Shown piece by piece: positions 4,836-45,711 of a DNA stretch of 46,751 bases. A program made the translations under genes and the position numbers. This stretch comes from a virus. The notes below the pieces were generated by a model that had not been told where the DNA came from, did no database searches, and saw nothing but the letters and a program-made list of their open reading frames with translations. The stretch covers positions 1-46,751 of the IMG/VR virus record IMGVR_UViG_3300032224_002724. One strand, written 5' to 3'. Every line of letters begins with the position of its first letter. Positions within the stretch are counted from its first letter, which is position 1.

Positions 4836-4836
4836 C

Positions 4837-5754: not shown

Positions 5755-5771
5755 ATTATACATTATCTATT

Positions 5772-6835: not shown

Positions 6836-6838
6836 AAC

Positions 6839-6874
6839 TTGATTTTATTATAAATATATAATAATATTATATTG
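6839..6874 (+). promoter_or_regulatory. Sigma70-like promoter with 1-base leader for the 3-dehydrase operon
   Basis: TTGATT (6839-6844), 17 bases, TAATAT (6862-6867). The expected start site is 6874, one base before the ATG at 6875. The region is very AT-rich, so the -10 alone would be weak evidence, but the 17-base spacing and the position relative to the ATG match the other promoters in the window. Confidence 0.45.
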
Positions 6875-10892: not shown

Positions 10893-10909
10893 ACAACATA
10901 TAATCTATT

Positions 10910-11995
10910 ATGAACAATATATTCAAAGATCTTTTTGTATTAGAAATGACAAACAATCACTTGGGCAGTCTTGAGAGAGGTTTAAAAATAGTAAGTGAAT
11001 TTGCCAAAGTAGTTAAATTTAATAATGTAAAAGCTGCTATTAAATTACAGTTTAGAGATGTGGATAACTTTATACATAAAGATTTTAAAGATAGAAAAGA
11101 TATAAGATATATTCGTAGGACAATTGAAACTAAAATGTCAGATCAAGATTATGAAGTGCTAGTTGATAATATTAAACATCAAGGCATGATTCCGATGTCT
11201 ACTCCATTTGATGAAAAATCAGTTGATTTATGTGAGAAATTAAATTTATCAATTATTAAAGTAGCAAGCGCAGACAATAACGATTGGGTTCTGCTAAACA
11301 AAATAGCTGAATTAAGAAAACCAGTTATAGTCTCATTAGGTGGTCTATCATTAAAAGACACGGATGATTTAGTAAGATTTTTTGCAAATAGAAATATACC
11401 ATTAGCTTTAAATCATTGTATAGCTACATACCCAACGAAAATTCAAGATCTTCAATTAAACCAAATTGATTATCTAGTAAATAGATATCCGTTAAACACA
11501 ATAGGTCTTTCTACTCATGAACAAGGAAATTCATATGACTCAATGCTTATATCTTATGGAAAAGGAGCAAGAACATTTGAAAAGCATATTGATATAAATA
11601 GCGATGGAAAAGAAACTTCTAAATACTCAGCTCTTCCTCAAGAAATAGATGAATGGTTTAAAGCTTGGCACAAAGCTAAAACTATTTGTGGTCATTCATC
11701 CATAGAAAGAATACTTCCACTCGAAGAAGAGTCTAATTTTCTAGATAATTATATTAGAGGAGTTTACTTTAAAAAAGATATAAAAGCTGGTCAAAAAATT
11801 AATAAAGAAGATATTTATTTAGCAATTCCTATACAAAAAGGACAAATCTCTGTTAGAGAATTAATGATAGGAGATTACGGTTTTATCTTAAACAAAGATT
11901 GTAAAAAAGATTCAGCAATGATGATTGATGATATTGATTGTGAATACTCAAGAAATGAAAGTTTAAAAAAGAGCATATATCAAAGAGGACTATGA
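10910..11995 (+). CDS. NeuB-family synthase (sialic/nonulosonic-acid synthase-like)
   Basis: The 361-residue product matches N-acetylneuraminate synthases in order: LEMTNNHLGS (E12 and the N-H pair), KLQFRDVDN, IPMSTPFDE (about 94-102), IKVASADNND, LNHCIATYPT, GLSTHEQGN and FEKHIDI. A C-terminal SAF/antifreeze-like domain follows (GVYFKKDIKAGQKINKEDI to the end). NeuB enzymes condense phosphoenolpyruvate with a C6 amino sugar to make a nine-carbon acid. No CMP-sugar synthetase of recognisable NeuA type is nearby, so the product may be an unusual acid or a different PEP condensation product. It overlaps the SDR gene by 4 bases. A TATAAT lies 5 bases before the ATG without a clear -35. Confidence 0.8.
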   Translation: MNNIFKDLFVLEMTNNHLGSLERGLKIVSEFAKVVKFNNVKAAIKLQFRDVDNFIHKDFKDRKDIRYIRRTIETKMSDQDYEVLVDNIKHQGMIPMSTPFDEKSVDLCEKLNLSIIKVASADNNDWVLLNKIAELRKPVIVSLGGLSLKDTDDLVRFFANRNIPLALNHCIATYPTKIQDLQLNQIDYLVNRYPLNTIGLSTHEQGNSYDSMLISYGKGARTFEKHIDINSDGKETSKYSALPQEIDEWFKAWHKAKTICGHSSIERILPLEEESNFLDNYIRGVYFKKDIKAGQKINKEDIYLAIPIQKGQISVRELMIGDYGFILNKDCKKDSAMMIDDIDCEYSRNESLKKSIYQRGL

Positions 11996-12648
11996 ATATA
12001 TTTTTAACTGGAGGTTCTAGAGGTATCGGTCTAGCAATAAAGAATAAATTTGAATCAGAAAAACATAAAGTTTTTGCGCCAACTAAACTTGAATTAAATC
12101 TATTAGATTTTAATGCTATAAATAAATACTCAGAAACTTTCACCGAAAATATTGATGTGTTAATTAATAACGCTGGAGTAAATAATATTTCAAATCTAGA
12201 AGATTTAGACATTTTTAATATAGCTAATACTTTACAAGTTAATGCAATTGGACCACTTTTATTAATTAAAAATTTATCCAAGAATATGATTAAAAATAAA
12301 AAAGGTCATATAATCAACATTAGTTCCATTTTAAGTTACATACCTAAAAAAGGCAGGATTACATACTCTGCATCTAAAGCAGCTTTAGATTCTATTACAA
12401 GAACTTGTGCATTAGAATTGAAAGAGCATAATATACAAGTCAATAGTATATGTCCAGGATATGTAGAAACAGAACTTACGTACAAGAATAATTCTCCAGA
12501 ACAAATAGAGGAAATTAAAAACTCTATGGCGATCAAAAGACTTTTAAAACCAGAAGAAATAGCAGAAGAAGTATATAAATTAGCATTAAATAAAAATGCA
12601 ACTGGTCAGATTATATCTGTAGATGGAGGATTATCTAGTGCTAATTAA
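11992..12648 (+). CDS. Classical short-chain dehydrogenase/reductase (FabG-like)
   Basis: The product has 218 residues and every classical SDR motif: TGGSRGIG (6-13) for NAD(P), NNAG (59-62), Ser111/112 in INISSILS, and YSASK with Tyr125 and Lys129, followed by CPGYVETEL and IISVDGGLSSAN. It reduces a ketone or oxidises an alcohol with NAD(P)H. Translation appears coupled to the NeuB-like gene (ATGA) and to the cyclase that follows, so the substrate is probably an intermediate of the same sugar pathway; this is inference. The family usually has about 240-250 residues, so this one is slightly compact. Confidence 0.8.
   Translation: MNIFLTGGSRGIGLAIKNKFESEKHKVFAPTKLELNLLDFNAINKYSETFTENIDVLINNAGVNNISNLEDLDIFNIANTLQVNAIGPLLLIKNLSKNMIKNKKGHIINISSILSYIPKKGRITYSASKAALDSITRTCALELKEHNIQVNSICPGYVETELTYKNNSPEQIEEIKNSMAIKRLLKPEEIAEEVYKLALNKNATGQIISVDGGLSSAN
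12625..12630 (+). promoter_or_regulatory. Shine-Dalgarno GGAGGA for the GTG start at 12638
   Basis: GGAGGA lies exactly 7 bases before GTG at 12638. Most genes in the window lack such a sequence, so it argues for the GTG rather than the ATG at 12623, which would overlap the preceding gene by 26 bases. The bases also encode Asp-Gly-Gly of the upstream SDR, so part of the match could be coincidental. Confidence 0.5.
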
Positions 12649-13648
12649 ATCATTTTACAAAGATTACTCACTTTCATTTGATTCTAATATATCTATGGAG
12701 AGTGATTTCATTATCGCAGATAAGAATATCTATAAACTATATCAAAATAAGTTCACAAAGACTCCCATACTAATTGATGCAATTGAAAGCAATAAAACCA
12801 TAAATACTTCAATAGATATATGTAAACAATTACTAGAAAAAAATATAAAGAAAAATAGTAAAGTCCTAGTTTTAGGAGGAGGAATAACTCAAGATGTTTG
12901 TGGATTTGCCATGAACATATTATTTAGAGGTATAAATTGGACTTATATTCCAACTACTCTTTTAGCTCAAGCTGATTCTTGCATTGGGAGTAAAACTTCT
13001 TTAAATTTAGATTCATATAAAAATATAATTGGTACATTTTATCCTCCCTCAAAAATTATAATTGACCGCAATTTTATCAAAACATTAGATGATAAAGATT
13101 ATTTTAGTGGAGTTGGGGAGATTGTAAAATTACATTTGATTGGTGGAGCATCATACTTTAAGCAATTCAATTTATTAATAGATAACATTTTGAATAGAGA
13201 CTTAATAGAATTAGAGAATATAATAAAAAATTGCTTGTCTATAAAAAAGCAATTCATTGAACAGGATGAGTTAGATTTAAATAAAAGACAAATTTTAAAT
13301 TTTGGTCATACTTTTGGCCACGCTATAGAAAGCGAAACTAATTATGAAGTTCCTCATGGTATTGCAGTTATATTTGGAATGATTATCGCCAATAAAGTTT
13401 CCTCAAAGATTGGCTTACTATCTAATGATACAACTAAAGATATACATGAAGTTTTAAGTAAAATTATTCAATCTGCTGGATTTAGCCCGTATCTTTTGAA
13501 AGATTTGAATAAAATGAATTTATTAGAAAAAACTAAAAAAGATAAGAAAAATACAGACGCAAGCACGATCAATATGATTCTGATGGACAATCTTTTTACT
13601 TTTGAAAAAATGCCGATTTCCTTAAAAGAATTAGAACAAATTATATGA
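12638..13648 (+). CDS. Dehydroquinate-synthase-like sugar phosphate cyclase
   Basis: About 336 residues. It follows the AroB superfamily closely: LVLGGGITQDVCGF for NAD, PTTLLAQADSCIGSKT, KNIIGTFYPPSKIIID, SGVGEIVKLH (the metal-ligand Glu and catalytic Lys), ILNFGHTFGHAIE and VPHGIAVIFGM (two metal-ligand His). Classic DHQ synthases have SVGGKT where this has CIGSKT and E-V-I-K-Y-G where this has E-I-V-K-L-H, so it may be a cyclase of the EEVS/DOIS type or use a different substrate. No other shikimate gene is present, which also argues against aromatic amino-acid synthesis. I chose the GTG with a good Shine-Dalgarno; an ATG 15 bases upstream is the alternative. Confidence 0.75.
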   Translation: MLIKSFYKDYSLSFDSNISMESDFIIADKNIYKLYQNKFTKTPILIDAIESNKTINTSIDICKQLLEKNIKKNSKVLVLGGGITQDVCGFAMNILFRGINWTYIPTTLLAQADSCIGSKTSLNLDSYKNIIGTFYPPSKIIIDRNFIKTLDDKDYFSGVGEIVKLHLIGGASYFKQFNLLIDNILNRDLIELENIIKNCLSIKKQFIEQDELDLNKRQILNFGHTFGHAIESETNYEVPHGIAVIFGMIIANKVSSKIGLLSNDTTKDIHEVLSKIIQSAGFSPYLLKDLNKMNLLEKTKKDKKNTDASTINMILMDNLFTFEKMPISLKELEQII

Positions 13649-14412
13649 AGGTTCTGATTACTGGTGGTAATGGATATATTGCAAAATCAATATACAATGC
13701 ATTATATAAATTTTATGATATAACAAGTATAACAAGAAAAGATTTTGACCTAGAAGACACACAATCAGTAAACGATTGGTTCAAAGATAAAACTTTTGAT
13801 ATAGTAATTCATACAGCTATACAAGGTGGATCTAGACTAAAAAGTGAAGATCAATCAGTTATAGACTCTAATTTAAATATGTTTAATAATCTTTTAATTA
13901 ATAAAGATAAATTTAAAAAATTAATATCATTTGGCTCTGGAGCAGAAATTCACGCAACAGAAACGCCTTATGGCAAAAGCAAAAGCATTATAAATGATAT
14001 AATTAAAAAAGAACCTAATTTTTATAATATAAGAATCTTCGCTGTATTTGATGAAAATGAATTAGATACAAGATTTATAAAGTCAAATCTATTAAAATAT
14101 ATAAACAAAGAACCAATGTTACTGCACGCTAATAAATTAATGGATTTTTTCTACATGAAAGATTTTATTAATTTAATTAAATATTATATTGACAATAACG
14201 ATTTAGCCAAACAAATAGATTGTTCATATAAACATAAAAGATCTCTTATAGAGATGGCTAATTATATTAATACATTGAATAATTACAGCGTACCTATCAA
14301 TCTAGAAAAAGATGTAATTATTGGAGATTATTGTGGTGTTAGTGATCTACCCATAGATGTTATTGGTCTAGAAAAAGGTATAGAAGAAGTATATAATAAA
14401 TTATGCACGTAG
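13645..14412 (+). CDS. NAD-dependent epimerase/dehydratase (extended SDR)
   Basis: The 255-residue product has an N-terminal Rossmann motif ITGGNGYIA, HTAIQGGSR, LISFGSGAE and the Y-x-x-x-K pair in YGKSK (Tyr109, Lys113), followed by IRIFAVFDEN. A C-terminal substrate lobe is present but short. It resembles nucleotide-sugar epimerases, reductases and dehydratases; the exact reaction cannot be read from the sequence. The last motif Gly is replaced by Ala (G-x-x-G-x-x-A), which is common in the family. It overlaps its upstream neighbour by 4 bases and its downstream neighbour by 10, so it belongs to the same operon. Confidence 0.7.
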   Translation: MKVLITGGNGYIAKSIYNALYKFYDITSITRKDFDLEDTQSVNDWFKDKTFDIVIHTAIQGGSRLKSEDQSVIDSNLNMFNNLLINKDKFKKLISFGSGAEIHATETPYGKSKSIINDIIKKEPNFYNIRIFAVFDENELDTRFIKSNLLKYINKEPMLLHANKLMDFFYMKDFINLIKYYIDNNDLAKQIDCSYKHKRSLIEMANYINTLNNYSVPINLEKDVIIGDYCGVSDLPIDVIGLEKGIEEVYNKLCT

Positions 14413-15038
14413 GCTCCTTTGAGGGACAGGATGTATTTGTGAAATATCTTTTCAAAGAAAAGAAAGATGGACTATTTTTAGATATAGCTTGCGATGATCC
14501 AATTCATGGTAGTAATACATATTTATTAGAGCAAGAATTAAATTGGGATGGATTTTGTTTTGATTTAAAAGATTATAACAATAACCCATTCCCATTAAGT
14601 AAAGGCAAATGGAACGACAATAGAAAACATTCTAAATTCATAATGATGGATGCAACTTCAGATGATTTGACATTTTTCTTAAAAGAAAATATTAAAGATC
14701 GAGTCGTGGATTACATTTCTTTAGATGTTGATGATAGAGGAATAAGAAATTTGTCACATTTAGTTCTTCCTAAAATCCTAGAAGCTGGAATTAAATTTAA
14801 AAGTATGACTATGGAGCATGAAGAATTCAAACGTGGAGATGCAGATATTAATCCTATAAGAGAAAATTTAATGAGCAAAGGATATATTATGTTATTCAAA
14901 AACATAACATTTGATACTGGTCAAGCTTTTGAAGATTGGTGGATTAATCCAATTTATTTTAGCAATGATATTATATCTTTAAAAACTGAAAATATTTATT
15001 GGAAAGAAGCTGTCGAGAAAATTAAGATCTTAAAATGA
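14403..15038 (+). CDS. FkbM-like SAM-dependent methyltransferase
   Basis: The product has 211 residues. SFEGQDVFV near the start matches the S-x-x-G-Q-D motif of FkbM-family O-methyltransferases. GLFLDIACDDPIHGSNTY is motif I (FVDIGA-like), with WDGFCFDL ending strand 2, and DYISLDVDDRGI is the strand-4 acidic motif. FkbM enzymes methylate sugar or polyketide hydroxyls. Here Ala-Cys replaces the usual Gly-Ala in motif I, so SAM binding may be altered. It sits between an epimerase and Gmd and overlaps both, suggesting it methylates a sugar made by this operon (inference). Confidence 0.65.
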   Translation: MHVGSFEGQDVFVKYLFKEKKDGLFLDIACDDPIHGSNTYLLEQELNWDGFCFDLKDYNNNPFPLSKGKWNDNRKHSKFIMMDATSDDLTFFLKENIKDRVVDYISLDVDDRGIRNLSHLVLPKILEAGIKFKSMTMEHEEFKRGDADINPIRENLMSKGYIMLFKNITFDTGQAFEDWWINPIYFSNDIISLKTENIYWKEAVEKIKILK

Positions 15039-16195
15039 GCAATAATTTTCAAGAAACATATCACGGCAAAAAAATAGATACGGCAAATATTCTTAATATC
15101 GAGGACGCAGCAAAAATCATTAATGGCAGAAAAACAGTAGTTATTACTGGAGTAACTGGTCAAGATGGTAGTCATATGGTTGATTTCCTATTAAAGAATA
15201 CTGATCTATTAATATTTGGCGGAGTTAGAAGACTTAGCGTTTATAATCATAAAAATATTAAACACATTAATTCTGATAGATTTCATTTGATTAATTTTGA
15301 CTTGACAGATTCTCATGCTATTGCTAGAACTGTAGAAAAACTGCAACCAGATTATTTTATTAATTTTGCTGCTCAAAGCTTCGTTGCAAGTAGTTGGGAT
15401 TTTGCTAGACAAACTTGGGCAACTAATTCCACTTCAGTTCTTGATATTCTTGAAGCGATTAGACTATATAAACCATCTTGTAGATTATATCAAGCTGGAT
15501 CAAGTGAAGAATTTGGAAATGTTGTTTATGCTCCTCAAGATGAAAAACATCCATTAAGACCAAGAAGCCCTTATGGAGCAAGTAAAGCTGCATCTAGGCA
15601 ACTTATTAAAGTTTATCGCGATTCTTATAAACTATATGCAATTCAAGGTTGGTTATTTAATCACGAAGGCACAAGGCGTGGAGAAGAATTCGTAACAAGA
15701 AAAATTACTAAAAATGTAGCTAGAATTTATAATTCAATCAAGAATAATGAAGAATTTGCTCCTTTAGAGCTAGGCAATATGGATGCAAAAAGAGATTGGA
15801 GCGATGCTGAAGATTTCATTGAAGGAGTTTGGATGATGCTTAATCAAGATATTTATAATAAAAATTACGATGGCACTCCTAAAGAATATGTATTTTCATC
15901 AAATGAAACTCATACAATTAAAGAATTTGTTGAAAAAGCATTTAGACATGTTGGAGTTGAGGGGCATTGGATTTATATAAATGATGGTCTTCCAGAAGAT
16001 GAAATATTTTGCATGAAGAAAAAAAATGATGATTTTCATTTATTAGTTAGAATTAATCCTAAATTCTATAGGCCAGCAGAAGTAGAATTATTACTTGGCG
16101 ATTCTACAATGGCTAGAAAAGAACTAGGATGGAAGCCAAAAATTTCATTTGACAATTTAGTACAAAAAATGGTTGAAAACGATTTGAATATATAA
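15035..16195 (+). CDS. gmd: GDP-mannose 4,6-dehydratase
   Basis: The product has 386 residues. After a roughly 33-residue N-terminal extension comes TGVTGQDGSHM (38-48), then FAAQSFVASSWD, AGSSEEFGNV (Ser156, Ser157, Glu158-Glu159 region), YGASK (Tyr180, Lys184), NHEGTRRGEEFVTRKIT and LGNMDAKRDWSDAEDF. These are the specific signatures of Gmd, which converts GDP-mannose to GDP-4-keto-6-deoxymannose, the precursor of fucose, colitose, rhamnose and perosamine. The catalytic Thr/Ser-Glu region is slightly different from E. coli (SSEE rather than STSE). Gmd is one of the commoner sugar genes carried by large phages. It ends the long overlapping gene run that began near 6875. Confidence 0.9.
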   Translation: MSNNFQETYHGKKIDTANILNIEDAAKIINGRKTVVITGVTGQDGSHMVDFLLKNTDLLIFGGVRRLSVYNHKNIKHINSDRFHLINFDLTDSHAIARTVEKLQPDYFINFAAQSFVASSWDFARQTWATNSTSVLDILEAIRLYKPSCRLYQAGSSEEFGNVVYAPQDEKHPLRPRSPYGASKAASRQLIKVYRDSYKLYAIQGWLFNHEGTRRGEEFVTRKITKNVARIYNSIKNNEEFAPLELGNMDAKRDWSDAEDFIEGVWMMLNQDIYNKNYDGTPKEYVFSSNETHTIKEFVEKAFRHVGVEGHWIYINDGLPEDEIFCMKKKNDDFHLLVRINPKFYRPAEVELLLGDSTMARKELGWKPKISFDNLVQKMVENDLNI

Positions 16196-16213
16196 TATAT
16201 ATTAAATATTAAG

Positions 16214-16228
16214 GTGTAATATCTTTTA
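16214..16228 (+). promoter_or_regulatory. -10-like element for the gene at 16229
   Basis: GTGTAATAT ends 6 bases before the ATG, so a start site would fall on the ATG. No convincing -35 lies 17 bases upstream. Very similar GTGTAA(N)AT strings precede the starts at 4045 and 21267 at almost the same distance, which is why I list it. Confidence 0.3.
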
Positions 16229-17275
16229 ATGATATTATTCTTTAATGTACTCGTAACTAATCACAGATTAAGTGGTCCAAATTCTTGCGACCGATTGGAT
16301 TTATTTAAATATTCTCTCTCTAGTTATTCCTGCATAGATATAATAAAAGATGTAATCATTTATTGTGAATTAGACCCAAGTTATAAACATAGAGAAGAAG
16401 AGCTTAAAGAATATATAGATTTAATATTTAAAGGTAAAAATATATCATTTAATAATTATAGTCCATGCAATCAAGGACAGTGGCAAAAAGCTTTACAAGA
16501 TTCAAATATATTAAATACAACTGAACCAATACTTTATTCTGGAAACGATGACCATGTATTCATAGATTACGATTTAACCTCAATTTATGAAGGAATAAAA
16601 TTATTAAAAAATGAACCTGATGATCAAATAAACTCTATAGCAATTAGTCATTGGCCAGAAGCGATTGGTCATGTATATCCTCGCGGTTTTATAGATCGAG
16701 ATATATTTTGGGAAAGAGAACTTTTATGCCCGATCGCAATTAAAATAACAAATAATAAATTTTTTGAACACTTGTTTTTTAATTTACAATTAGGAGATGG
16801 GCATTTTAGAAGAACTGATCTTATTTTAATAAATGTTTATCCTGATTTAGGCGATTTCGCTGTTCCATCTACTAAACCGCATCCAAAAATGAAAACTTTT
16901 TTTCCAATAAAAGGAGAAATGGTAAGGCATTTTGATGCTTACAATATTCATGTAAATATACCACATTCAATTTGTCCTCCGTTAAAAATTCCAAATGGAT
17001 TTTTTAAAAATGATATAAAAATAAATTATTGTGGAAAACCAAAAGAAAATTTTTATAATATTAATCCTTTAGGAGGAGAAGGAGTAGATGATAAAAAATT
17101 ACTACAAGATTTACCATTATTTTGGAAAGATAAAATTTCAATAATAGAAGATAACAGCGATCAATTTAAAACAGAAGATTTGGTTAATGCTAGAAATTTA
17201 AATCATAAAAATTTAATAACGGCTTCTTGTTTAAATTTGGAAGAAAAATATATTAAGATTGGATATAGAAAATAA
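16229..17275 (+). CDS. Putative GT-A-type glycosyltransferase
   Basis: The product has 348 residues. The N-terminal half (FFNVLVTNHRLSG, KDVIIYCELDPSYKHREEEL) has the alternating strand/helix pattern of a nucleotide-sugar-binding fold. PILYSGNDDHVFIDYDL provides an acidic cluster (N-D-D-H) at the place a D-x-D is expected. IAISHWPEAIGHVY and a Cys/Pro/Gly-rich C-terminus (NIPHSICPPLKIPNG, CGKPKENFYNI) are distinctive but unfamiliar. I assign glycosyltransferase from fold pattern and context, not from a recognised family. It sits directly before a nucleotidyltransferase gene. Confidence 0.45.
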   Translation: MILFFNVLVTNHRLSGPNSCDRLDLFKYSLSSYSCIDIIKDVIIYCELDPSYKHREEELKEYIDLIFKGKNISFNNYSPCNQGQWQKALQDSNILNTTEPILYSGNDDHVFIDYDLTSIYEGIKLLKNEPDDQINSIAISHWPEAIGHVYPRGFIDRDIFWERELLCPIAIKITNNKFFEHLFFNLQLGDGHFRRTDLILINVYPDLGDFAVPSTKPHPKMKTFFPIKGEMVRHFDAYNIHVNIPHSICPPLKIPNGFFKNDIKINYCGKPKENFYNINPLGGEGVDDKKLLQDLPLFWKDKISIIEDNSDQFKTEDLVNARNLNHKNLITASCLNLEEKYIKIGYRK

Positions 17276-17280
17276 TCAAA

Positions 17281-18024
17281 ATGAGTGATCTTACAGTTAT
17301 TTTACCATGTGCAGGAAAAGGTTCTCGATTAGGACTTCCTTTTTCTAAAGAAATATATAGTGTTGAAAAAGATAAAAGTTTAATTGATTATACTTTCGAC
17401 CTCTTTAAAGATTTTGGTAGAAAAGATATTCATTTTATTGTTACAATAAATGAATCTAAATTAGATTTAGTAGAATATTTAAAAAAATATAAAGATCGTT
17501 ATAATATAACGTTTACATTTTTTAATCCAAATGAAAAAGAGTATACAGGATCAATTAAAAGTGCAAAACATCTTTTTGGAGAAAAAAATTTAGTTTTACT
17601 TCCAGATTCTTTTTTTACGCTTAAAAAAACTCAAAATCTTTTAGATATTACTTCTAATAGTCTTAACGAAACAGGATTCACTTTCTTTTTTAAAAAAGAA
17701 AAATCAGAATCAATGCTTCGCACAAAAGGGGCTCTAATAATATCCAAAGATAATCTCGTATTAGATTATGAAGATAAACCGCAAGAAAATATTGCAAGAT
17801 TTAATGCTTTTTGGGGTTCATTTGCGTTTCGTAAAAGAACATTTGATGCTTGTATTGAATTTATGGAAAAATCTACATTAAATCATAATATTAAATTAGA
17901 TGAAATAAAAAATACGCCGATATACTTGTCAAAAGGAATTCAAATAAATGAATACTATGACCTTGGAACTTGGCAAGAAATTTACAAATTTATAAAAATA
18001 AAGCATGCAATAACTTTTAATTAA
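17281..18024 (+). CDS. Sugar-1-phosphate nucleotidyltransferase-like protein
   Basis: The 247-residue product has the nucleotidyltransferase N-terminal loop VILPCAGKGSRLGLPFSKEI (G-x-G-x-R-L, then P-x-x-K-E), VLLPDSFF for the metal/sugar-binding acidic strand, GSIKSAKHLF, and FNAFWGSFAFRK near the sugar-binding region. It activates a sugar phosphate to an NDP-sugar. Sequence does not fix the nucleotide; it is not a clear RmlA or RfbF. It may feed the 4,6-dehydratase and Gmd-type enzymes upstream, which is inference. It is followed 2 bases later by a HAD phosphatase. Confidence 0.65.
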   Translation: MSDLTVILPCAGKGSRLGLPFSKEIYSVEKDKSLIDYTFDLFKDFGRKDIHFIVTINESKLDLVEYLKKYKDRYNITFTFFNPNEKEYTGSIKSAKHLFGEKNLVLLPDSFFTLKKTQNLLDITSNSLNETGFTFFFKKEKSESMLRTKGALIISKDNLVLDYEDKPQENIARFNAFWGSFAFRKRTFDACIEFMEKSTLNHNIKLDEIKNTPIYLSKGIQINEYYDLGTWQEIYKFIKIKHAITFN

Positions 18025-18026
18025 AA

Positions 18027-18605
18027 ATGAACAAAAAAATATTATTTGATTGCGATGGAGTGCTTTTAGATTGGGCATATGCTTTCGATATATGGATGAG
18101 TGAAAATGGTTTTAAACGTATACCTAAAACAGATCATATTTATGAAGTTGAAAAACGTTTTGCAATTTCAAAATCTGAAGCTATAAAACAGATAAATAAA
18201 TTTAATGAATCTAATTCTGTAGGATTTATTCCAGCCCTCAACGATGCAGCTCAATTTATTCCAAAATTATATAAGGCGGGTTATAAACTTGAAGTTATAA
18301 GTTGTCTTCATAAAGATAAGCATGCTCAAAAATTAAGAGAAAAAAATTTAATTCATTTATTTGGAGAAGTATTTGAAGATATAAATTGCGGTCTTGATTT
18401 TACAAAAGGGAAAATTGAGTTTTTACAAAAAAAATATTCTGGAAAAAAATATTTTTGGTTAGAAGATTCTGTTGAACACGCAATAGCTGGTAAAAATATT
18501 GGCTTAAAAAGCGTTATAATGAGTCACCCCTATAATTCAAAATGGCGCGGTTTACGAGTTTCTTCAATGAAAGAATTTTATAAATTAGTAACAAAAACAA
18601 AATGA
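18027..18605 (+). CDS. HAD-superfamily phosphatase
   Basis: The 192-residue product has HAD motif I FDCDGVLLDW (Asp8 nucleophile, Asp10), motif II in LEVISC (Ser), a motif III lysine near DFTKGKIEF and motif IV FWLEDSVEH (Glu-Asp). The cap is small and helical, between motifs I and II (MSENGFKRI to KFNES). Probable substrates are sugar phosphates or nucleotides. It overlaps the DeoD-type phosphorylase gene by 4 bases, so a nucleotide-salvage role is as likely as one in sugar synthesis. Confidence 0.7.
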   Translation: MNKKILFDCDGVLLDWAYAFDIWMSENGFKRIPKTDHIYEVEKRFAISKSEAIKQINKFNESNSVGFIPALNDAAQFIPKLYKAGYKLEVISCLHKDKHAQKLREKNLIHLFGEVFEDINCGLDFTKGKIEFLQKKYSGKKYFWLEDSVEHAIAGKNIGLKSVIMSHPYNSKWRGLRVSSMKEFYKLVTKTK

Positions 18606-25594: not shown

Positions 25595-26356
25595 ATGGAA
25601 GTATTACCAGTTTTTAAGTCTCATTTTAGTATAGGAAGATCAATCCTTACTCTAGAAGACGAAGAAATTTCAGAAAATGATCCAGATTCAATTATTGATA
25701 TAGTTAAAAAAAATAATATTAAAGATTTATTTTTAATTGAAGATAATATGTCTTCATTTCTTCAAGCATATACTAATACAAAAAAGAATAATATCAACTT
25801 AAGATATGGATTAAGATTATCAATTAATGATAATATAGAAGATAAAACAGAAGAGTCCAGAAGTAAAACATCAAAAGTAGTTATATTCTTTAAAACTAAT
25901 GAAGGTTATACTAGACTTATTAAAATTTTTACAGAAGCAGCAAAAAATGGATTCTATTACGAACCAAGAATTGATTATAAAACATTAGAAAAAATGTGGT
26001 CCGATAATGATTTGATGCTTTGTATTCCATTTTACGATTCTTTTATCTTTAATAACACATTAAAGAATTTCATTTGTGTTCCAAATTTTAATTTTACTAA
26101 ACCAGTTATGCTTTTAGAAAATAATTGCTTACCTTTTAATTTTATTATAAAAGAAAAAATAATTAAATATGCAGAAGCAAATAAACTTGAAATACTTAAT
26201 GTAAAGAGTATCTATTATAAAACTAAAAAAGATTTTAAATCTTATCTTACATTTAGATGCATCAACAACAGAACGACTCTAAATAAACCAGAACTAAATC
26301 ATATGAGCAGTGATGAATTTTCTTTTGAATCTTGGAAGGAACAAGCAAAATGCTAG
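25595..26356 (+). CDS. PHP domain of DNA polymerase III alpha, encoded separately
   Basis: The 253-residue product matches the N-terminal PHP part of bacterial Pol III alpha. It opens with FKSHFSIGRSIL (where active PHP domains have a His-x-His motif), then DLFLIEDNMSSFLQAY, NINLRYGLRLSIND, VVIFFKTNEGYTRLIKIFTEA and GFYYEPRIDYKTL, each matching the order in DnaE. It ends at NHMSSDEFSFESWKEQ, the point where the thumb/palm begins. Only one of the metal-binding His residues of motif 1 is kept, so phosphoesterase activity is doubtful and a structural role more likely. The catalytic half is a separate gene at 27679, with three genes between. No intein sequence is seen. Confidence 0.75.
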   Translation: MEVLPVFKSHFSIGRSILTLEDEEISENDPDSIIDIVKKNNIKDLFLIEDNMSSFLQAYTNTKKNNINLRYGLRLSINDNIEDKTEESRSKTSKVVIFFKTNEGYTRLIKIFTEAAKNGFYYEPRIDYKTLEKMWSDNDLMLCIPFYDSFIFNNTLKNFICVPNFNFTKPVMLLENNCLPFNFIIKEKIIKYAEANKLEILNVKSIYYKTKKDFKSYLTFRCINNRTTLNKPELNHMSSDEFSFESWKEQAKC

Positions 26357-26823
26357 TCAAGAAATTAACTATCAATGGCACAAAAGCCATCCAAAGAGAA
26401 GATCGAGAGGATAGATTAAGAGATTATAAACAATGGATTTATGATCAGCCTAAACTATACGCATCTGACATTGATCAAATTGAATGGGGTTATCAAAATA
26501 ATGAAGAAGAACCAGTCGCAGTTCTTGAATTGACAAGAATTGATAGAGAATTTAAACCTTCGGATAAATACTTCGAAGCCATAATCCACAGGTTCTTCGT
26601 AAGAGATACTCAAGCTAGAAGAATTATAAAAGTCGCAAATAGATTAGGGGTAGATGCTTATATCGTTGCTTTTTTACAAGATCTTTCTGGATTTTCTATG
26701 TATAATCTTTGTAAGCGGGACGGATGGAAACATATCTCACCACAAGAATATTTAAATTGGCATTACCAAATAAGAGGATTAAATGGATTTATTAAAACAA
26801 ATGCAGATCCATTTTTAGACTAA
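26350..26823 (+). CDS. Uncharacterised protein between the two polymerase pieces
   Basis: The ATG at 26350 is preferred over a TTG 18 bases upstream because GGAAGGA (26334-26340) lies 9 bases before it. The 157-residue product is charged, with RLRDYKQWIYDQ, then YFEAIIHRFFVRDTQARRIIKVANRLGVDAYIVAF and LCKRDGWKHISPQEYLNWH. No catalytic motif or known family is visible. Its place between PHP and exonuclease genes, with overlap on the PHP side and one base gap on the other, makes it a candidate polymerase accessory subunit (inference). Confidence 0.45.
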   Translation: MLVKKLTINGTKAIQREDREDRLRDYKQWIYDQPKLYASDIDQIEWGYQNNEEEPVAVLELTRIDREFKPSDKYFEAIIHRFFVRDTQARRIIKVANRLGVDAYIVAFLQDLSGFSMYNLCKRDGWKHISPQEYLNWHYQIRGLNGFIKTNADPFLD

Positions 26824-26824
26824 T

Positions 26825-27463
26825 ATGGACGAACATCTTTTAAGATATAATAAAAACAAGACTTTTGTTTTTATAGATTTGGAAACATTCAATCTTTGTT
26901 TAAATTTTTCTCATAATTTACCTTGGCAGATCGGACTTATTAAAGCTAAAGGAGATTTTAGAGTTGATAGCAAAAATTTTTATATTAAATGGGATACGGA
27001 TTTAAAAATAAGTGATGATGCAGCAAGGATTACAAGATACGATCACAAAAGGGTTCAAAAAGAAGGTTTGAATATTAAAGACGCTTTTCCAACAATCAAA
27101 GATTGGTTAGATCATACAGATTATATTGTTGGACATAATATTTTAGGTTTTGATGTTTATTTAATTAAAGAGCTTTATAAAACAATGGGTTGTAATTATG
27201 AGCATTTGTTAAATAAAATAATTGACACAAATTGTATAGCTAGAGGTATAAAATATGGAATTCCATATAAAAACGATATAAATCTATTAGAATATCAATA
27301 TAAAATCTATCATACTAAAAAGAAAAATGTAAAAAGTTCATTGACAGCTTTAGGTAAAGAGAATAGTATAGAACATGACTATGAGAAACTTCATGATGCT
27401 ATTAATGATCTTGACTTGAATTTAAAAGTATGGAATAAATTGAAATGGCAAATGGAGATATAA
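26825..27463 (+). CDS. DEDDh 3'-5' exonuclease (DnaQ/epsilon-like)
   Basis: The 212-residue product has all three exonuclease motifs: Asp18-x-Glu20 in FVFIDLETFNL (ExoI), IVGHNILGFDVY with Asp110 (ExoII), and LHDAINDLDLN with His190 and Asp195 (ExoIII, H-x4-D). It belongs to the DnaQ family that proofreads DNA polymerase III. Its position between the two parts of the alpha subunit suggests it is the viral epsilon subunit; that is inference, and a repair role is possible. No clamp-binding motif was identified by eye. Confidence 0.85.
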   Translation: MDEHLLRYNKNKTFVFIDLETFNLCLNFSHNLPWQIGLIKAKGDFRVDSKNFYIKWDTDLKISDDAARITRYDHKRVQKEGLNIKDAFPTIKDWLDHTDYIVGHNILGFDVYLIKELYKTMGCNYEHLLNKIIDTNCIARGIKYGIPYKNDINLLEYQYKIYHTKKKNVKSSLTALGKENSIEHDYEKLHDAINDLDLNLKVWNKLKWQMEI

Positions 27464-27464
27464 T

Positions 27465-27689
27465 ATGGCATCATTAGACGACGTATACGATATGACACAA
27501 AGACTAGAAGATAATAATATTGAATATCTTCTTATTACTGTCACAAAAGGTAAGAAACAAGGTAAAGCAGATGTATTTTATTATCTTAAAAGCGCAGAAT
27601 CCATGAGAGTTCTATCTAAAGGATTGCAAGCGTTTAATGAAGAAATAGATAAAATTGACAGAGAAGATAAACCAGAAGATGAACTGTAA
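27465..27689 (+). CDS. Small uncharacterised protein before the polymerase core
   Basis: The 74-residue product begins MASLDDVYDMTQRLEDNNIEY, then ITVTKGKKQGKADVFYYL, and ends in an acidic tail (DKIDREDKPEDEL). GGAG lies 7 bases before the ATG, so it is translated on its own and is unlikely to be an artefact. It overlaps the polymerase gene by 11 bases, so the two may be coupled. Function unknown; the tail could be a protein-binding segment for a replisome partner. Confidence 0.5.
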   Translation: MASLDDVYDMTQRLEDNNIEYLLITVTKGKKQGKADVFYYLKSAESMRVLSKGLQAFNEEIDKIDREDKPEDEL

Positions 27690-30243
27690 AGATTTTTCCT
27701 CAAGCTTCAGCAAGATTGATCTTCCTCTACATGGAGTAAGATTACCAGAGTTTGTTATAGATAAAGTATACAAACATCAAGTAGAGATTAGTGAAGATTC
27801 ATCGAATTACGATTTTTTAAGAGCTTTGTCTTTAAAAGGTTTCAAAGATTTAAATATTAAAAAAGATTTACCAGAATACAAAAAATATATTGATAGAGCT
27901 AAATATGAATTAGACACGCTAAAGGAACTAGGATTTATTGATTATATATTATTGGTTTGGGACGTTATCAATTATTGTAAAGAGCACAATATTCCAGTTG
28001 GTCTTGGACGAGGATCGGCTGCAGGATCATTAATTTTATATCTAATTGGCGTAACTAGAATTGATCCAGTTAAATATGGCCTTTATTTCGAAAGATTTAT
28101 ATCCAAGATTCGAGCTAAAAAGCAAGTTGTTGATGGAGTAACCTATTTAGATGGTAGTTTAATGTGTGACGTTGATTTGGATATTTGTTATTATAATAGA
28201 CCTAAAGTTTTGCAATATTTGGAAGAAAAATTTAAAGGTAAAACTAGTAAAATTTTAACATTAAATACTCTAAGTGGAAAACTGCTTATCAAAGAATGCG
28301 GTAAAATTATTGCTGAAAAATCAGAACAAGAGATGACTGAAGTATCATCTTTGATTCCAAAAGTATTCGGTCAAGTAAAAGATATTTCAACCGCTTATGA
28401 AGAAGTTCCAAAATTCAAAGATTGGTGTGACGCAAATAAAGAGATTTATCAAATAGCCTTAAAATTAAGAAATCTAATCAAGAACAAAGGAGTCCATCCA
28501 TCTGGAGTATTATTATCTTATGATTATTTAGAGAACACTTGCCCAACAGAGTTATCAAGCGATAAAGAGGCTGTCTCCAGTTTCGATATGAGTTGGGTAA
28601 GTTTATTTAATATCAAACTTGATATTCTAGGCTTAAGAAGTGTATCTGTTGTAGATGATGTTTGCAAAAGTATAAATAGAAAAGTCACGGAAATTGATTT
28701 GAATGATGAATCAATTTATAGAAATCTTCAAGACCTAAGATCACCACACGGATTATTTCAAATTGAAGCTGATACAAATTTTAGAGTATGTCAAAAAGTT
28801 AAACCTAAAAATCTAGAAGAATTAAGTGGAGTTCTAGCACTTGCAAGACCTGGAGCATTACAATTCGTAGATAAATATGCTGCTCATACAAATTTTCAAC
28901 AATCTGAAAGTATCCATCCATTTTTTGATGATATTCTAAAAGATACTGGTGGAGTTGCATTATATCAAGAGCAATTGATGCAAATGGCTCACAAGATTGG
29001 TTTCACATTAGATGAAGCAGAAATCTTAAGAAGAATCGTTGGAAAAAAGAAGACTGAAGAAATTAAAGAATGGCAATCAAAAATTAAACAAAAAGTAAAA
29101 GAAAATAAACTTCCAAAAGAAGTTGGAGATATTCTTTGGAAGATTATGGAAGATTCTGCTAATTATTCATTCAACAAATCTCATTCACTAGCTTATGCAG
29201 CTTTAGCAGCAGTTACTGTTTATCTAAAGTTTAACTATCCTCAACAATTCTTTTTATCTTTATTAAAGATGACTAGACACGAACCAGATCCAATTGGTGA
29301 AATTTCTAAAATTCAAAAAGAAATGGCATTTTTTGGAATCAAACTTTTAAGACCACACGTTATTAAATCTGAAATGGATTTCTCAATTGAAGGTCAAGAC
29401 ATCAGATTCGGATTGCTTTCTGTAAAAGGTATTTCTGATAAATCAATTGAAAAGTTAAATAGCTTCAGAAACAAATACTCAAATAAATTCGAAATTTTTC
29501 AAGCAGCAGAAGAGGCAGATTTAAACATAGGAGTATTATGTTCTTTGATTCAAGCTGGAGCATTAACTGGCTTTAAACAAAGCAGAAGTAAAATCGTACT
29601 AGAAGCTCAACTTTGGAATATCTTAACCACTAAAGAAAAAAGATATGTAATTTCATTTGCTGAGAAATTTGATCATGATTTGATTAAGATTATTAAACAT
29701 TTAAATTGTTTTACAGATGAAAAAAATAAAGTTATTATTAAAGGCTCTAGGTTAGAAACAATTAAAAATAAATACGAACCTTATCTTAAAATTTATAATC
29801 AGAATAGTAAAAGCGAAAGTTTCGCTAATTGGTATTATGAAAAACGACTTCTTGGTTATACTTATGAAAAATCATTAAGAGATATCTTCATTGAAAAGAA
29901 AGAAGACTTGATGACTATAAGTGAAATTCTAGATTTGCCAGTTAATTCTAAAGTAGCATTTGTGGCAGAAATTATGGATAGTTATTCTGGCACATCTAAA
30001 AATGAAAAGAAAACTAGATTTTTAAGATTAAATACTGCCGATGAAACTGGTAATATTAATGTCTTATTATTCAATGACAAGATAGATAATAATAAAACCT
30101 TAAATAAAGACAAAAATTTTGAAGAAAAGAATATTGTTATATTTAAAGGCATTAAAAAAGAAGATTGTATATTTGCAGATATTGCAGCAATTCAAGATCA
30201 TCAAATTTATATGAAATTAAGTGAACTTAAAAAAATTAATTAA
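27679..30243 (+). CDS. DNA polymerase III alpha catalytic core (without PHP)
   Basis: The ATG at 27679 is chosen over a TTG 24 bases upstream. The 854-residue product contains the DnaE palm: VGLGRGSAAGSLILYLIG, catalytic DVDLD (Asp164, Asp166, matching D401/D403 of E. coli) and KLDILGL (Asp315, matching D555). The fingers follow (NKGVHPSGVLLS, LFQIEADTNFRV, ALARPGAL, YQEQLMQMAHKIG, RRIVGKKK, SFNKSHSLAYAALAAV). A tandem helix-hairpin-helix (LLSVKGISDKSIEKL) and an OB domain (VAFVAEIMDSYSG onwards) complete it. It lacks the N-terminal PHP domain, which is the gene at 25595; together they make one full alpha subunit of about 1,100 residues. The last bases overlap a converging glycosyltransferase gene. 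Confidence 0.9.
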   Translation: MNCKDFSSSFSKIDLPLHGVRLPEFVIDKVYKHQVEISEDSSNYDFLRALSLKGFKDLNIKKDLPEYKKYIDRAKYELDTLKELGFIDYILLVWDVINYCKEHNIPVGLGRGSAAGSLILYLIGVTRIDPVKYGLYFERFISKIRAKKQVVDGVTYLDGSLMCDVDLDICYYNRPKVLQYLEEKFKGKTSKILTLNTLSGKLLIKECGKIIAEKSEQEMTEVSSLIPKVFGQVKDISTAYEEVPKFKDWCDANKEIYQIALKLRNLIKNKGVHPSGVLLSYDYLENTCPTELSSDKEAVSSFDMSWVSLFNIKLDILGLRSVSVVDDVCKSINRKVTEIDLNDESIYRNLQDLRSPHGLFQIEADTNFRVCQKVKPKNLEELSGVLALARPGALQFVDKYAAHTNFQQSESIHPFFDDILKDTGGVALYQEQLMQMAHKIGFTLDEAEILRRIVGKKKTEEIKEWQSKIKQKVKENKLPKEVGDILWKIMEDSANYSFNKSHSLAYAALAAVTVYLKFNYPQQFFLSLLKMTRHEPDPIGEISKIQKEMAFFGIKLLRPHVIKSEMDFSIEGQDIRFGLLSVKGISDKSIEKLNSFRNKYSNKFEIFQAAEEADLNIGVLCSLIQAGALTGFKQSRSKIVLEAQLWNILTTKEKRYVISFAEKFDHDLIKIIKHLNCFTDEKNKVIIKGSRLETIKNKYEPYLKIYNQNSKSESFANWYYEKRLLGYTYEKSLRDIFIEKKEDLMTISEILDLPVNSKVAFVAEIMDSYSGTSKNEKKTRFLRLNTADETGNINVLLFNDKIDNNKTLNKDKNFEEKNIVIFKGIKKEDCIFADIAAIQDHQIYMKLSELKKIN

Positions 30244-42282: not shown

Positions 42283-45200
42283 TTAAAATAAATAATCATA
42301 ATATGATATTCTAAATCTATTAACTTCTTCTGTTAATATTTGAACTTCTGCTTGTTTTTCAGTTTCTCCATCCCCAATAGCCCCACTTCCACTAGGTTCT
42401 GGAATGCCGCTTTCATTTAATTTACAAGAAAAATTAATTAATTGATAATCTGCATAACCACTACCACAAACTATACCTGTTGCACCAGGAGTTCGCAAAC
42501 ATATTATAGATCCACTTGGTTGAGGAACATTTCCACTACCTAATTGATCTAATAAATCTTTTAATTTTTCTTCTACGTCAACTTTTTTATTTTCAACTTC
42601 AGATGAAATTGGTATTTCTTTAGTTATTGTATATTTTGTATTTTCAATTGAATCATATGGAATATTAGTTGTAACATTTGCATTAGGGCTTTTAATATAA
42701 GTATTAAGTGGTTGTAAATTTTGAGAAGTTACAACTCCAGTCCAATCAATATAATTATCTGAAACTTCTAACCTCATAATTTTAGGAACAAGATAGTTAT
42801 AGATTTGCAATCTAGGTTGTAAATTTAATTTAATATCATGGCTTCCAAATTTTCCACTTCTTAATGAAACAATATTTATTATACTATTTCCACTCTCATC
42901 AATTCCTCCATCAATTCCAGTGAGTAATGGCCCATATTCATATTGTATAGTTTTTTCATATTTTAATGGTTTCCAACTATATAATCCAGAGGATGCAAAT
43001 TTATAATTTATATTATTAATTAAACTTTGTTTTCCACTAAAATAGTCATATCCAGTAATTCCATTAGAATATATAAATTCGGTTGTATATTCTTTTATCG
43101 TTGGTCGTATACCATATAACGATGTAAATACTTTTTCGTAATCAAATGGATATTGTTTAAATGTAATTTTATCTCCATCATAAAAACTATTAACCGCAAT
43201 TTGTCCAGAATAATAATTTAAATTATATTTTAATTTAATTGTTAATGGGCTTGAATCATCTAAGAAAAATACTCCAGAATAAATAGCATCTCCACTTTCA
43301 GGAGTTTTAGGAAGATTTAAATTTGCATTTATTGCACTAGCCAAATCATTACTACATCCATTTTCTTTACAATAACAACATAAACTATTTAAATCTGTAT
43401 CTATCGCAACTCTATAAATAGATTCATTTGGAGAAGTATAAAAATTTAAATTTTTAGTGAAAACTGTAGATGGTAAGTATTTTTTTGGTATATCTATATA
43501 CGTTTCTCCATTCTTAAATTTTTTGGCAGCATCTTGACATATAACACAAAATGCAGTAGTACATGCTGCAGCTTTACCTGTTGAAATAGTAATACTTGGT
43601 ATACATAAATTTGAATATGCTCCAGTAATTTCTTTATAAAATAAAAATGGACTATCTACTGTTCCACTTATTGATCTTTCAAAATCAATAGCAAAAGCTA
43701 CTGGATTTTGATTATTTAAACTATTAAATCCAGATCCAGAAATTAGTTCTCTTAATCCTAATCCATAAGTTGCCCAAATTTTATCTTCGTTTTGCATGTA
43801 TATTTCTTTTAATTTTTCTCCAGTAACGTAATTAACGTTTAAAGATAGTAAACTAATGTTTTGATTTTTGCCACTTTGACTATTTTCAGTATACAAGAAA
43901 TCGTTTTCATTTCCAGAAAGTATAGTTGTATAAGTTCCAGGCTGTAGAAAGTATAAAAATCCAGTTTGTGTTCCTGTTATATAATTTCCATTTTGTAAGT
44001 AATTATTATTGTTATCAAATATTATAAATTTATATTCGCCAAGATTATAACTTAAATTATTATTTATATTTTTGTATTCAAATAAACAAGGTAAAGCTAT
44101 ATTTTTATTGTTAGATAATAATGGTGGATTTATTGTAATATTATTTTTTAAGAACTTATATTTTTCATTAACATAAGAACTTGTGTTAGTATGATGAGAA
44201 CTATCATAATTTATAAAATTATCTACTTTAAAATTTTGCAACATTCTTTTTTGAGAAAGATATTCATTAATATTATCAGTAATTCCAATAGGTTTTATTG
44301 GATCTAAAATTTCTATATTCAAAATACTAGGATTTTTTGGTATATCTTTGAAATATCCAGTTCTTAAAATAAGAGAATTCAATTCGATATCACAATCTTC
44401 TATACTATCTTCTTCAAAACCATATAAATTAAGATCTAATACAAGAATATGCTGTTCTCCACTTGATGGTAAAAATTGTTGATAATAAGAATCAATTGAA
44501 TTTTGCCTATAAGTTTTAGCACCATAATTAATATATTCATTATTTACAATTTCATAAGAAACTTTTGGTAATCCATATAAACCAGTATCATATTCATAAG
44601 GCTCTTTACCAGAAAATAATCCAGTATAAATTGTACCTAAATAATTTTTTAATTGTATAAAAGAAATATCATTTAAAATATTATAACCTGCAAAATTAGT
44701 ATAAGTTATTCCAGAAACGGGAAGATTAATATATTTTTGTATATATTGATTTATATTAATTTGTCCACTAGTATAATTATAAATACCAGTATCAAAAACT
44801 GGCTTTAATCTTTTATTGCTACTTTGTATTCCATTTAATAAAAATAAACCTGTATTAAATTCAAATTTACTTTGATCAGAATAGATTCCAATACCTGTAA
44901 AAAATATTTGTCCATAAGTATTATCTCCCCAACCAGTAATAGTTCCATTTTTTAATAAAGCTATATTAAAATATCCACCAGCACTAATCGCTCTAGCATT
45001 TGAGCCAATACCAATTGGTATATTAATTTGACCATAACTATTGTCTCCCCATCCAGTTATAGTTCCATTTTTTAATAATGCTAATGAATGATTTGCTCCT
45101 GCACTTATTCTACTAGCATTGGTACCAATTCCAATTGGAATATTTATTTGTCCATAACGATTATCTCCCCATCCAGTAACCCTTCCATCATTTAATAATG

Positions 45201-45711
45201 CAAGACTAAAATTTTCTCCTGCACTAATTCCTGTAGCATTTGAGCCAATACCAATTGGTATATTAATTTGACCAGAGTTATTATAACCCCAACCAGTAAT
45301 ACTTCCATCCTCTAGTAATGCGAGAGAATGCTTAAATCCAGCACTTATTTTATTAGCATTATTTACTATACCAGCAGGAATTGTTATCTGTCCATAAGTA
45401 TTATCTCCCCATCCAGTAATATTTTTATCATTTAATATAAGAAGTGAATGTGCATATCCAGCAGCTATTTCAATTCCATTTGTATCTGCGGGAATATTTA
45501 TTTGACCATAATCACGAAATCCAAAACCAGTAATTTCTCCATTATTTAATAAAGCAAGACCATGATAATATCCTGCCGAAATTTTATTAATATTATATAA
45601 ATATTTAATTTGATTATAATCATTATTTCCCCAACCAGTTACTATACCATTATTCAATAATGCTAATGAATAATTTAATCCCGCACTAATTGATTTTACA
45701 TCAGTGATCAT
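42283..45711 (-). CDS. Large virion-type protein with seven RCC1-like repeats
   Basis: The 1142-residue product begins with seven tandem RCC1-like repeats (residues about 4-280), each near 40 residues: 'ISAG..HSLALL.NG.ITGWGDN.YGQI.IP.GIGSNA'. Seven blades would form a complete beta-propeller, as in RCC1. The middle (about 300-1050) is Asn/Tyr/Gly/Thr-rich with beta character and Cys clusters (CTTAFCVICQDAAKKF, SLCCYCKENGC). The C-terminus is Gly/Ser-rich with paired Cys (IICLRTPGATGIVCGSG). It is probably a tail-fibre, spike or receptor-binding component. Its ATG overlaps the upstream stop by one base. Confidence 0.55.
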   Translation of the reverse strand: MITDVKSISAGLNYSLALLNNGIVTGWGNNDYNQIKYLYNINKISAGYYHGLALLNNGEITGFGFRDYGQINIPADTNGIEIAAGYAHSLLILNDKNITGWGDNTYGQITIPAGIVNNANKISAGFKHSLALLEDGSITGWGYNNSGQINIPIGIGSNATGISAGENFSLALLNDGRVTGWGDNRYGQINIPIGIGTNASRISAGANHSLALLKNGTITGWGDNSYGQINIPIGIGSNARAISAGGYFNIALLKNGTITGWGDNTYGQIFFTGIGIYSDQSKFEFNTGLFLLNGIQSSNKRLKPVFDTGIYNYTSGQININQYIQKYINLPVSGITYTNFAGYNILNDISFIQLKNYLGTIYTGLFSGKEPYEYDTGLYGLPKVSYEIVNNEYINYGAKTYRQNSIDSYYQQFLPSSGEQHILVLDLNLYGFEEDSIEDCDIELNSLILRTGYFKDIPKNPSILNIEILDPIKPIGITDNINEYLSQKRMLQNFKVDNFINYDSSHHTNTSSYVNEKYKFLKNNITINPPLLSNNKNIALPCLFEYKNINNNLSYNLGEYKFIIFDNNNNYLQNGNYITGTQTGFLYFLQPGTYTTILSGNENDFLYTENSQSGKNQNISLLSLNVNYVTGEKLKEIYMQNEDKIWATYGLGLRELISGSGFNSLNNQNPVAFAIDFERSISGTVDSPFLFYKEITGAYSNLCIPSITISTGKAAACTTAFCVICQDAAKKFKNGETYIDIPKKYLPSTVFTKNLNFYTSPNESIYRVAIDTDLNSLCCYCKENGCSNDLASAINANLNLPKTPESGDAIYSGVFFLDDSSPLTIKLKYNLNYYSGQIAVNSFYDGDKITFKQYPFDYEKVFTSLYGIRPTIKEYTTEFIYSNGITGYDYFSGKQSLINNINYKFASSGLYSWKPLKYEKTIQYEYGPLLTGIDGGIDESGNSIINIVSLRSGKFGSHDIKLNLQPRLQIYNYLVPKIMRLEVSDNYIDWTGVVTSQNLQPLNTYIKSPNANVTTNIPYDSIENTKYTITKEIPISSEVENKKVDVEEKLKDLLDQLGSGNVPQPSGSIICLRTPGATGIVCGSGYADYQLINFSCKLNESGIPEPSGSGAIGDGETEKQAEVQILTEEVNRFRISYYDYLF
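44880..45700. repeat. Tandem 120-base repeats encoding RCC1-like blades
   Basis: Units repeat at close to 120 bases (40 codons). The later units are very similar in DNA, and a string of about 34 bases is shared by 45001-45034 and 45241-45274, two units apart. High DNA identity between blades indicates recent expansion or recombination between units. Confidence 0.75.

What the first reader, a model, noticed from the sequence alone, without database searches (positions are those of the whole stretch)
25595..30243. DNA polymerase III alpha split into PHP and catalytic genes with an exonuclease gene in between
Seen: the PHP-type protein (253 aa) ends where the canonical DnaE domain ends, and the catalytic protein (854 aa) begins there. 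Between lie an unknown gene, a DEDDh exonuclease and a small unknown gene. No intein or trans-splicing sequence is seen. Inference: alpha and epsilon work as a multi-part enzyme assembled by protein contacts. The split at an exact domain border with the proofreading gene inside the gap is unusual.
Basis: partly seen in the sequence, partly recalled or inferred. Interest (0 to 1): 0.75.

Follow-up and report, generated by a model that had tools for sequence, protein, structure and literature searches.

The report
Phage replicase with stand-alone PHP subunit
A large group of uncultured aquatic viruses of bacteria (phages) makes its only recognisable DNA-copying enzyme from separate genes, with the enzyme's front domain broken off as its own dead-site protein and a proofreading gene always lying between that piece and the catalytic piece, a layout I did not find described.

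Summary
A 253-aa protein (25595-26356) is only the PHP domain of DNA polymerase III alpha. The 854-aa protein (27679-30243) is the rest of a DnaE-type alpha: palm, fingers, helix-hairpin-helix and a C-terminal OB-like region. A 212-aa DEDDh exonuclease (26825-27463) lies between them. It is not an assembly error, a remnant or trans-splicing. Among 313 distinct polymerase sequences collected, 291 stretches show the order PHP-EXO-POL. No clade member is fused, and all but one of the other clade stretches lack upstream sequence. Polymerases in this clade are 48-98% identical to the window's and form one clade (support 100/99) apart from fused bacterial and phage DnaEs. Records of 74-211 kb each hold one PF07733 polymerase; 13 of the longest have no family A or B polymerase. 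All parts are under strong purifying selection. The PHP has lost 8 of 9 metal ligands, so it is very probably structural, while EXO and POL catalytic residues are invariant. The two 'unknown' genes are lineage-specific insertions. Best reading: a replicase core assembled by protein contacts, with PHP as adaptor for the proofreader. Physical association is inferred; my covariation test was inconclusive. Split alphas are known, but cut inside the polymerase domain.

The parts
25595..26356 (+). PHP: stand-alone PHP domain of DNA polymerase III alpha (253 aa), metal site lost
   Evidence: Pfam PHP E 6.7e-11; phrog_405 columns 60-293; AlphaFold pLDDT 91.7 and Foldseek to DnaE PHP, TMq 0.70-0.79 for the DnaE hits; 8 of 9 metal ligands replaced in the clade
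26350..26823 (+). Unknown insert gene (157 aa from ATG), overlaps the PHP stop; present in about 27 of 140 loci, not core
   Evidence: no Pfam hit above cut-off
26825..27463 (+). EXO: DEDDh 3'-5' exonuclease (212 aa), proofreading candidate; lies between PHP and POL in 291 of 291 complete loci
   Evidence: RNase_T E 1e-12; phrog_192 'DNA polymerase exonuclease subunit' E 2.8e-21; D18, E20, D110, H190, D195 invariant in 140
27465..27689 (+). Small unknown gene (74 aa), acidic C-terminus, overlaps the POL start by 11 bp; lineage-restricted, possible accessory subunit
   Evidence: homologues at this slot in 85 ORFs; overlaps of 8-20 bp with POL
27679..30243 (+). POL: catalytic part of DnaE-type alpha (854 aa), lacks PHP
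   Evidence: Pfam DNA_pol3_alpha 7.6e-55, finger 4.3e-33, HHH_6 3.4e-16; D164, D166, D315 invariant in 27 representatives; Foldseek to DnaE

Best explanation
This is the replicative DNA polymerase of a large uncultured clade of tailed phages. A DnaE-type alpha subunit was permanently divided at the PHP/polymerase border into two proteins, with the proofreading exonuclease gene between them. Three proteins (PHP, EXO, POL) are made from one operon and probably assemble non-covalently. POL makes DNA, EXO proofreads, and PHP, which has lost its metal site, acts as the adaptor that docks on POL and holds EXO near the primer end. Shown: separate intact genes, fixed order, single copy, selection on all three, intact POL and EXO catalytic residues, dead PHP site, no other family A or B polymerase found in the large records. 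Inferred: physical assembly and the adaptor role.
For: Order PHP-EXO-POL in 291 of 313 distinct loci; of the 22 others, 2 are distant fused outgroups (26-28% identity) and 20 lack PHP and/or EXO in the stretch, 19 of them with less than 1.7 kb upstream. The split clade is one side of a branch with 100/99 support. Median pairwise dN/dS: PHP 0.048, EXO 0.028, POL 0.028. One PF07733 match in each of 32 records and none of PF00476 or PF00136 in 13 records of 132-211 kb. The PHP model's closest PDB matches are all DnaE PHP domains, including the isolated PHP-epsilon constructs 4gx8/4gx9. In E. coli, alpha residues 1-270 alone are soluble and sufficient to bind the proofreading exonuclease (PMC3642679), which is almost exactly the piece these phages encode separately.
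Against: No direct evidence of contact. Inter-protein covariation (291 pairs, effective number about 170) did not beat noise. EXO ends 17 residues after its last catalytic Asp, so it lacks the epsilon tail that wraps the E. coli PHP; any EXO-PHP contact must be built differently. One contig (L467, 54 kb) has POL without PHP or EXO next to it.
Confidence: 0.72

Rival explanations
1. The PHP-derived protein has left the polymerase and does another job (for example binding a ligand or a host protein); POL works with EXO only.
For: The metal site is replaced by other fixed residues (S12 and F146 invariant, K94 in 87 and R74 in 83 of 88 sequences), which suggests a re-used pocket; inserts of up to 2 kb separate PHP from EXO; covariation with POL is not convincing.
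Against: It keeps the DnaE PHP fold over its full length and matches DnaE PHP before any other PHP protein; it is single copy and stays just upstream of EXO-POL in 291 loci.
Confidence: 0.18
2. The two pieces are joined after synthesis, by a split intein or by trans-splicing of RNA.
For: Split inteins do occur in this clade: in L554 and L196 the POL gene itself is broken by one, and L558 has a contiguous intein at the same site.
Against: Those lie inside POL (between SANYSFN and SHS), not at the PHP/POL border. PHP stops at its domain end, and POL has only about 17 residues before its first conserved motif, too short for an intein C-half. No Rfam match.
Confidence: 0.02
3. Assembly error, frameshift, or decayed remnants of a full-length DnaE encoded elsewhere.
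Against: Same split in some 290 distinct contigs with low dN/dS; one PF07733 match per record in 32 records.
Confidence: 0.01
4. An ordinary case of phage gene fragmentation that happened at a domain border and was fixed by drift; the pieces assemble but nothing functional was gained. (Compatible with the assembly part of the best explanation, so the confidences overlap.)
For: Phage polymerase genes are often broken (phiT1, phi13:1, KLEB27-3); a single origin on the tree.
Against: The clade-wide fixed order with EXO inside and the conserved re-made PHP pocket suggest retained function, but do not exclude this.
Confidence: 0.3

Closest known systems
Bacterial DnaE alpha with epsilon (E. coli Pol III core)
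   Same: Same domains, catalytic Asp triad and GRGS motif; inactive PHP used as the docking site of a separate DEDDh exonuclease (PMC3642679)
   Different: PHP is part of the alpha chain there; epsilon has a PHP-binding tail and a clamp motif, EXO has neither
PolC (Gram-positive replicase)
   Same: Proofreading exonuclease lies between PHP and polymerase in the order of parts
   Different: PolC is one chain with the exonuclease inserted inside the PHP domain; POL here is DnaE-like (Foldseek DnaE TMq up to 0.68, PolC 0.47)
Split Pol III alpha of jumbo phage group 2.2 (PMC7824862)
   Same: Phage Pol III alpha encoded as two proteins
   Different: There the cut is inside the catalytic domain (NTP-binding and C-terminal parts), the genes lie far apart, and a family B polymerase is also present
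Alphas in two ORFs in Rossellomorea phage phiT1, Cellulophaga phage phi13:1 and Bacillus phage KLEB27-3
   Same: Adjacent alpha ORFs
   Different: Their first ORF keeps PHP together with the start of the polymerase domain; KLEB27-3 has an HNH gene in the break
Cyanobacterial split DnaE inteins
   Same: alpha encoded by two genes
   Different: Those are joined by protein splicing; no intein at this border

Membership tests
C-family DNA polymerase, DnaE type | Catalytic Asp triad and GRGS motif | tested here: met
   D164, D166, D315 in all 27 representatives; GLGRGSAAGS in the window protein, core of the motif invariant
C-family DNA polymerase, DnaE type | PHP, polymerase and (HhH)2 in one polypeptide | tested here: not met
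   Separate ORFs in 291 of 291 complete loci
[quoted passage not shown]
   Motif in 12 of 106 POLs, at scattered positions
C-family DNA polymerase, DnaE type | C-terminal OB fold and tail domain | tested here: inconclusive
   OB-like strands at residues 758-838 in the model and weak Foldseek hits to OB folds; no Pfam OB match
PHP domain | Fold and profile match | tested here: met
   Pfam E 6.7e-11, Foldseek
PHP domain | Active metal site HHDHEH[C/H]DH (motif from PMC12926913) | tested here: not met
   Only H10 remains; the other ligands are S, variable, D, R, K, F, S, Y
DnaQ / epsilon proofreading subunit | DEDDh catalytic residues | tested here: met
   All five invariant in 140
DnaQ / epsilon proofreading subunit | Clamp motif and alpha-binding C-terminal tail after the catalytic domain | tested here: not met
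   Protein ends about 17 residues after the last Asp, no clamp motif there
DnaQ / epsilon proofreading subunit | Physical association with alpha | not testable with these tools
   No complex prediction available; covariation inconclusive
PolC | Exonuclease inserted in the PHP domain of one chain | tested here: not met
   PHP is contiguous and EXO is a separate gene
Split-intein DnaE | Intein halves at the break | tested here: not met
   None at the PHP/POL border; true split inteins in L554 and L196 lie elsewhere
Jumbo phage group 2.2 split Pol III | Break inside the catalytic domain, with a family B polymerase present | tested here: not met
   POL has the whole catalytic domain; no PF00136 in 13 large records

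The most novel reading that the evidence does not exclude
A phage replicase core in which a catalytically dead, detachable PHP protein is a dedicated adaptor subunit joining a tail-less DEDDh proofreader to a PHP-less C-family polymerase, a subunit organisation not described for family C, fixed across a whole uncultured phage lineage.
Probability: 0.5. Interest if true: 0.75.

Novelty: new variant of a known kind. Interest (0 to 1): 0.57.

Why it matters
What the inactive PHP domain does in bacterial replicases is still debated. Here nature has cut it out as an independent gene and kept it, so its role (scaffold, proofreader dock, regulator) could be tested by leaving one protein out. The clade was found only in uncultured virus contigs and one MAG contig (more than 290 distinct loci collected), with no near relative among 50,697 deposited phage records, and this appears to be its only replicative polymerase.

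Tried and rejected
Residue covariation between PHP and POL (mean-field DCA, 291 pairs): couplings within PHP looked sensible, but PHP-POL and EXO-POL tails were similar and clustering of the top PHP-POL pairs gave p 0.06-0.10 at best; not used as evidence. Rfam for introns: nothing. Pfam search for a DnaN or gp45-type clamp in 10 records: nothing, though G001 has a clamp-loader-like gene. EXO against PDB sequences: no hit. Host inference from Shine-Dalgarno frequency (12-21% against 7% in shuffles): not decisive. The idea that the 157-aa and 74-aa genes are core subunits was dropped because many loci lack them. Literature searches for a PHP-only split found none, but only open-access full text is held.

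Full report
What is there. The window is a 46,751-bp IMG/VR virus record (G000). The region holds a replication operon on the + strand: RecA/UvsX-like gene, DnaB-like helicase, ThyX (by sequence, unscanned), primase and a phage exonuclease, then PHP, a 157-aa gene, EXO, a 74-aa gene and POL. PHP and POL tile the phage Pol III alpha profile phrog_405 (columns 60-293 and 322-1090). Aligned to E. coli DnaE, PHP ends near residue 256 and POL F25 aligns with F281, so the break is at the PHP/polymerase border. AlphaFold gives confident models of both parts (pLDDT 91.7 and 86.0), whose best solved matches are DnaE alpha subunits. Genes overlap or abut (PHP/157-aa gene by 7 bp, 74-aa gene/POL by 11 bp), as in a translationally coupled operon.

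It is not an artefact. A scan with POL gave relatives of 79-98% identity, nearly all with the same order. A DNA pattern for the PHP motif KSH[YF]S.G.SILT gave a further wide set; the stretches listed encode PHP relatives, mostly followed by EXO and POL. Five more scans widened this. After removing duplicates there are 313 polymerases: 291 with PHP-EXO-POL; 2 fused, which are distant (26-28%) outgroups L559 and L560; and 20 without PHP and/or EXO in the stretch, 19 of them with less than 1.7 kb upstream. The exception, L467, has the 74-aa gene and POL next to other genes on a 54-kb contig without PHP. The clade members' POLs reach down to 48% identity to the window. A bacterial-genome scan gave one clade member, in a Flavobacteriaceae MAG contig (L208), with the same order; the nearest other bacterial hits that my PHP profile recognised (L209, L210) are fused. 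In a maximum-likelihood tree the split clade is one side of a branch with 100/99 support. With fused outgroups a single split is the simplest history, although the root is not fixed and some outgroup branches are long.

It is the functional polymerase. PF07733 and PF02811 occur once in each of 20 records of 74-172 kb, and PF07733 once in each of 12 more. No PF00476 or PF00136 match was found in 13 records of 132-211 kb, with positive controls ringing in known genomes. Pairwise dN/dS medians are 0.048 (PHP), 0.028 (EXO), 0.028 (POL) and 0.074 (74-aa gene). These records may be incomplete, so absence is strong but not absolute.

PHP is very probably not a nuclease. Using phiT1 gp20 as a guide for the nine metal ligands, only H10 remains; the others are S12, a variable position, D50, R74, K94, F146, S205 and Y207, most of them fixed in the clade. 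EXO keeps all five DEDDh residues in 140 sequences and POL its Asp triad in all 27 representatives. EXO must therefore supply proofreading if the complex proofreads. An inactive PHP compensated by a separate DnaQ-type proofreader is established in bacteria (PMC12926913).

Mechanism. In E. coli, alpha residues 1-270 alone are soluble and bind the exonuclease, whose tail wraps around PHP (PMC3642679). The phage PHP corresponds to that fragment, so an independent, proofreader-binding PHP protein is plausible. EXO however ends about 17 residues after its last catalytic Asp and lacks both that tail and the clamp motif, so the contact would have to be made by the catalytic domain or by POL. Assembly is an inference from conserved order, single copy, fold and this precedent. 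My own covariation test was inconclusive.

What is not part of it. The PHP/EXO gap is at most 60 bp in 172 of 291 loci and holds unrelated cargo in many others; the EXO/POL gap is at most 60 bp in 144. Both are short in 90 loci. The 74-aa gene is a lineage-specific companion of POL and might be an accessory subunit; there is no test of that here.

No splicing at the border. Intein-like insertions were found in POL of three relatives at one site (SANYSFN/SHS): contiguous in L558, split in L554, and split with an HNH-like extension in L196 (identified by reading the translations, not by a profile search). They show what a splicing break looks like in this gene; the PHP/POL border has nothing similar, and Rfam finds no RNA there.

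Novelty. Split Pol III alphas are known (PMC7824862; phiT1, phi13:1, KLEB27-3), but those are cut within the polymerase domain or by an intron/homing gene. I found no description of a PHP-only break. The clade has no relative closer than about 31% (POL) in 50,697 phage records, and the best PHP hit covering most of the protein is 28%.

Noticed in passing
L558 (POL ORF), L554:4486-7542, L196:7023-10564: Inteins at one site in POL of three relatives: contiguous in L558, split into two ORFs in L554, split with an HNH/NUMOD-like homing endonuclease part in L196.
   Followed up: partly
gap between PHP and EXO across the clade, e.g. L120:12548-13594, L110:8308-8874, L135:9068-9937, L094:3045-3500: Cargo site: unrelated genes (IMPDH, SET, cupin-8/JmjC, cupin-2, possible PD-(D/E)XK nucleases) sit in this gap in different viruses.
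   Followed up: partly
window 27465-27689: 74-aa conserved gene overlapping the POL start, acidic tail; homologues at the same slot in many loci; possible polymerase accessory protein.
   Followed up: partly
L467: Only stretch with ample upstream sequence where PHP and EXO are not next to POL; no PHP found in the 54-kb record. Rearrangement or chimeric contig.
   Followed up: partly
G031:C1:68148-68900: PHP match with one internal TAA in a 200-kb record; sequencing error or a broken gene.
   Followed up: no
L292:2314-3303 (record G001): Adenylosuccinate-synthetase-like gene matching a phage PurZ-type family (phrog_1211, E 3e-65), but it reads WGDEGKGK, with the Asp that I recall as typical of ordinary PurA; whether these phages modify adenine is open.
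   Followed up: no
L293:3481-4413 (record G001): Clamp-loader-like AAA+ protein (phrog_5846) although no DnaN or gp45-type clamp was found by Pfam; a diverged clamp may exist.
   Followed up: partly
window 1966-18605: Long run of glycan and nucleotide-sugar genes (epimerases, aminotransferase, glycosyltransferases, synthase-like proteins), read by eye only.
   Followed up: no
window 42283-45711: 1142-aa protein with RCC1-like repeats (phrog_16766, regulator of chromosome condensation) next to a tail-fibre-like gene.
   Followed up: no
record G001 (L288-L296), L291:206-3342: Prepilin-like and secreted beta-repeat-like proteins that recall Planctomycetota or Verrucomicrobiota (by eye, from memory), in the 172-kb relative; possible host hint or chimera.
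   Followed up: no
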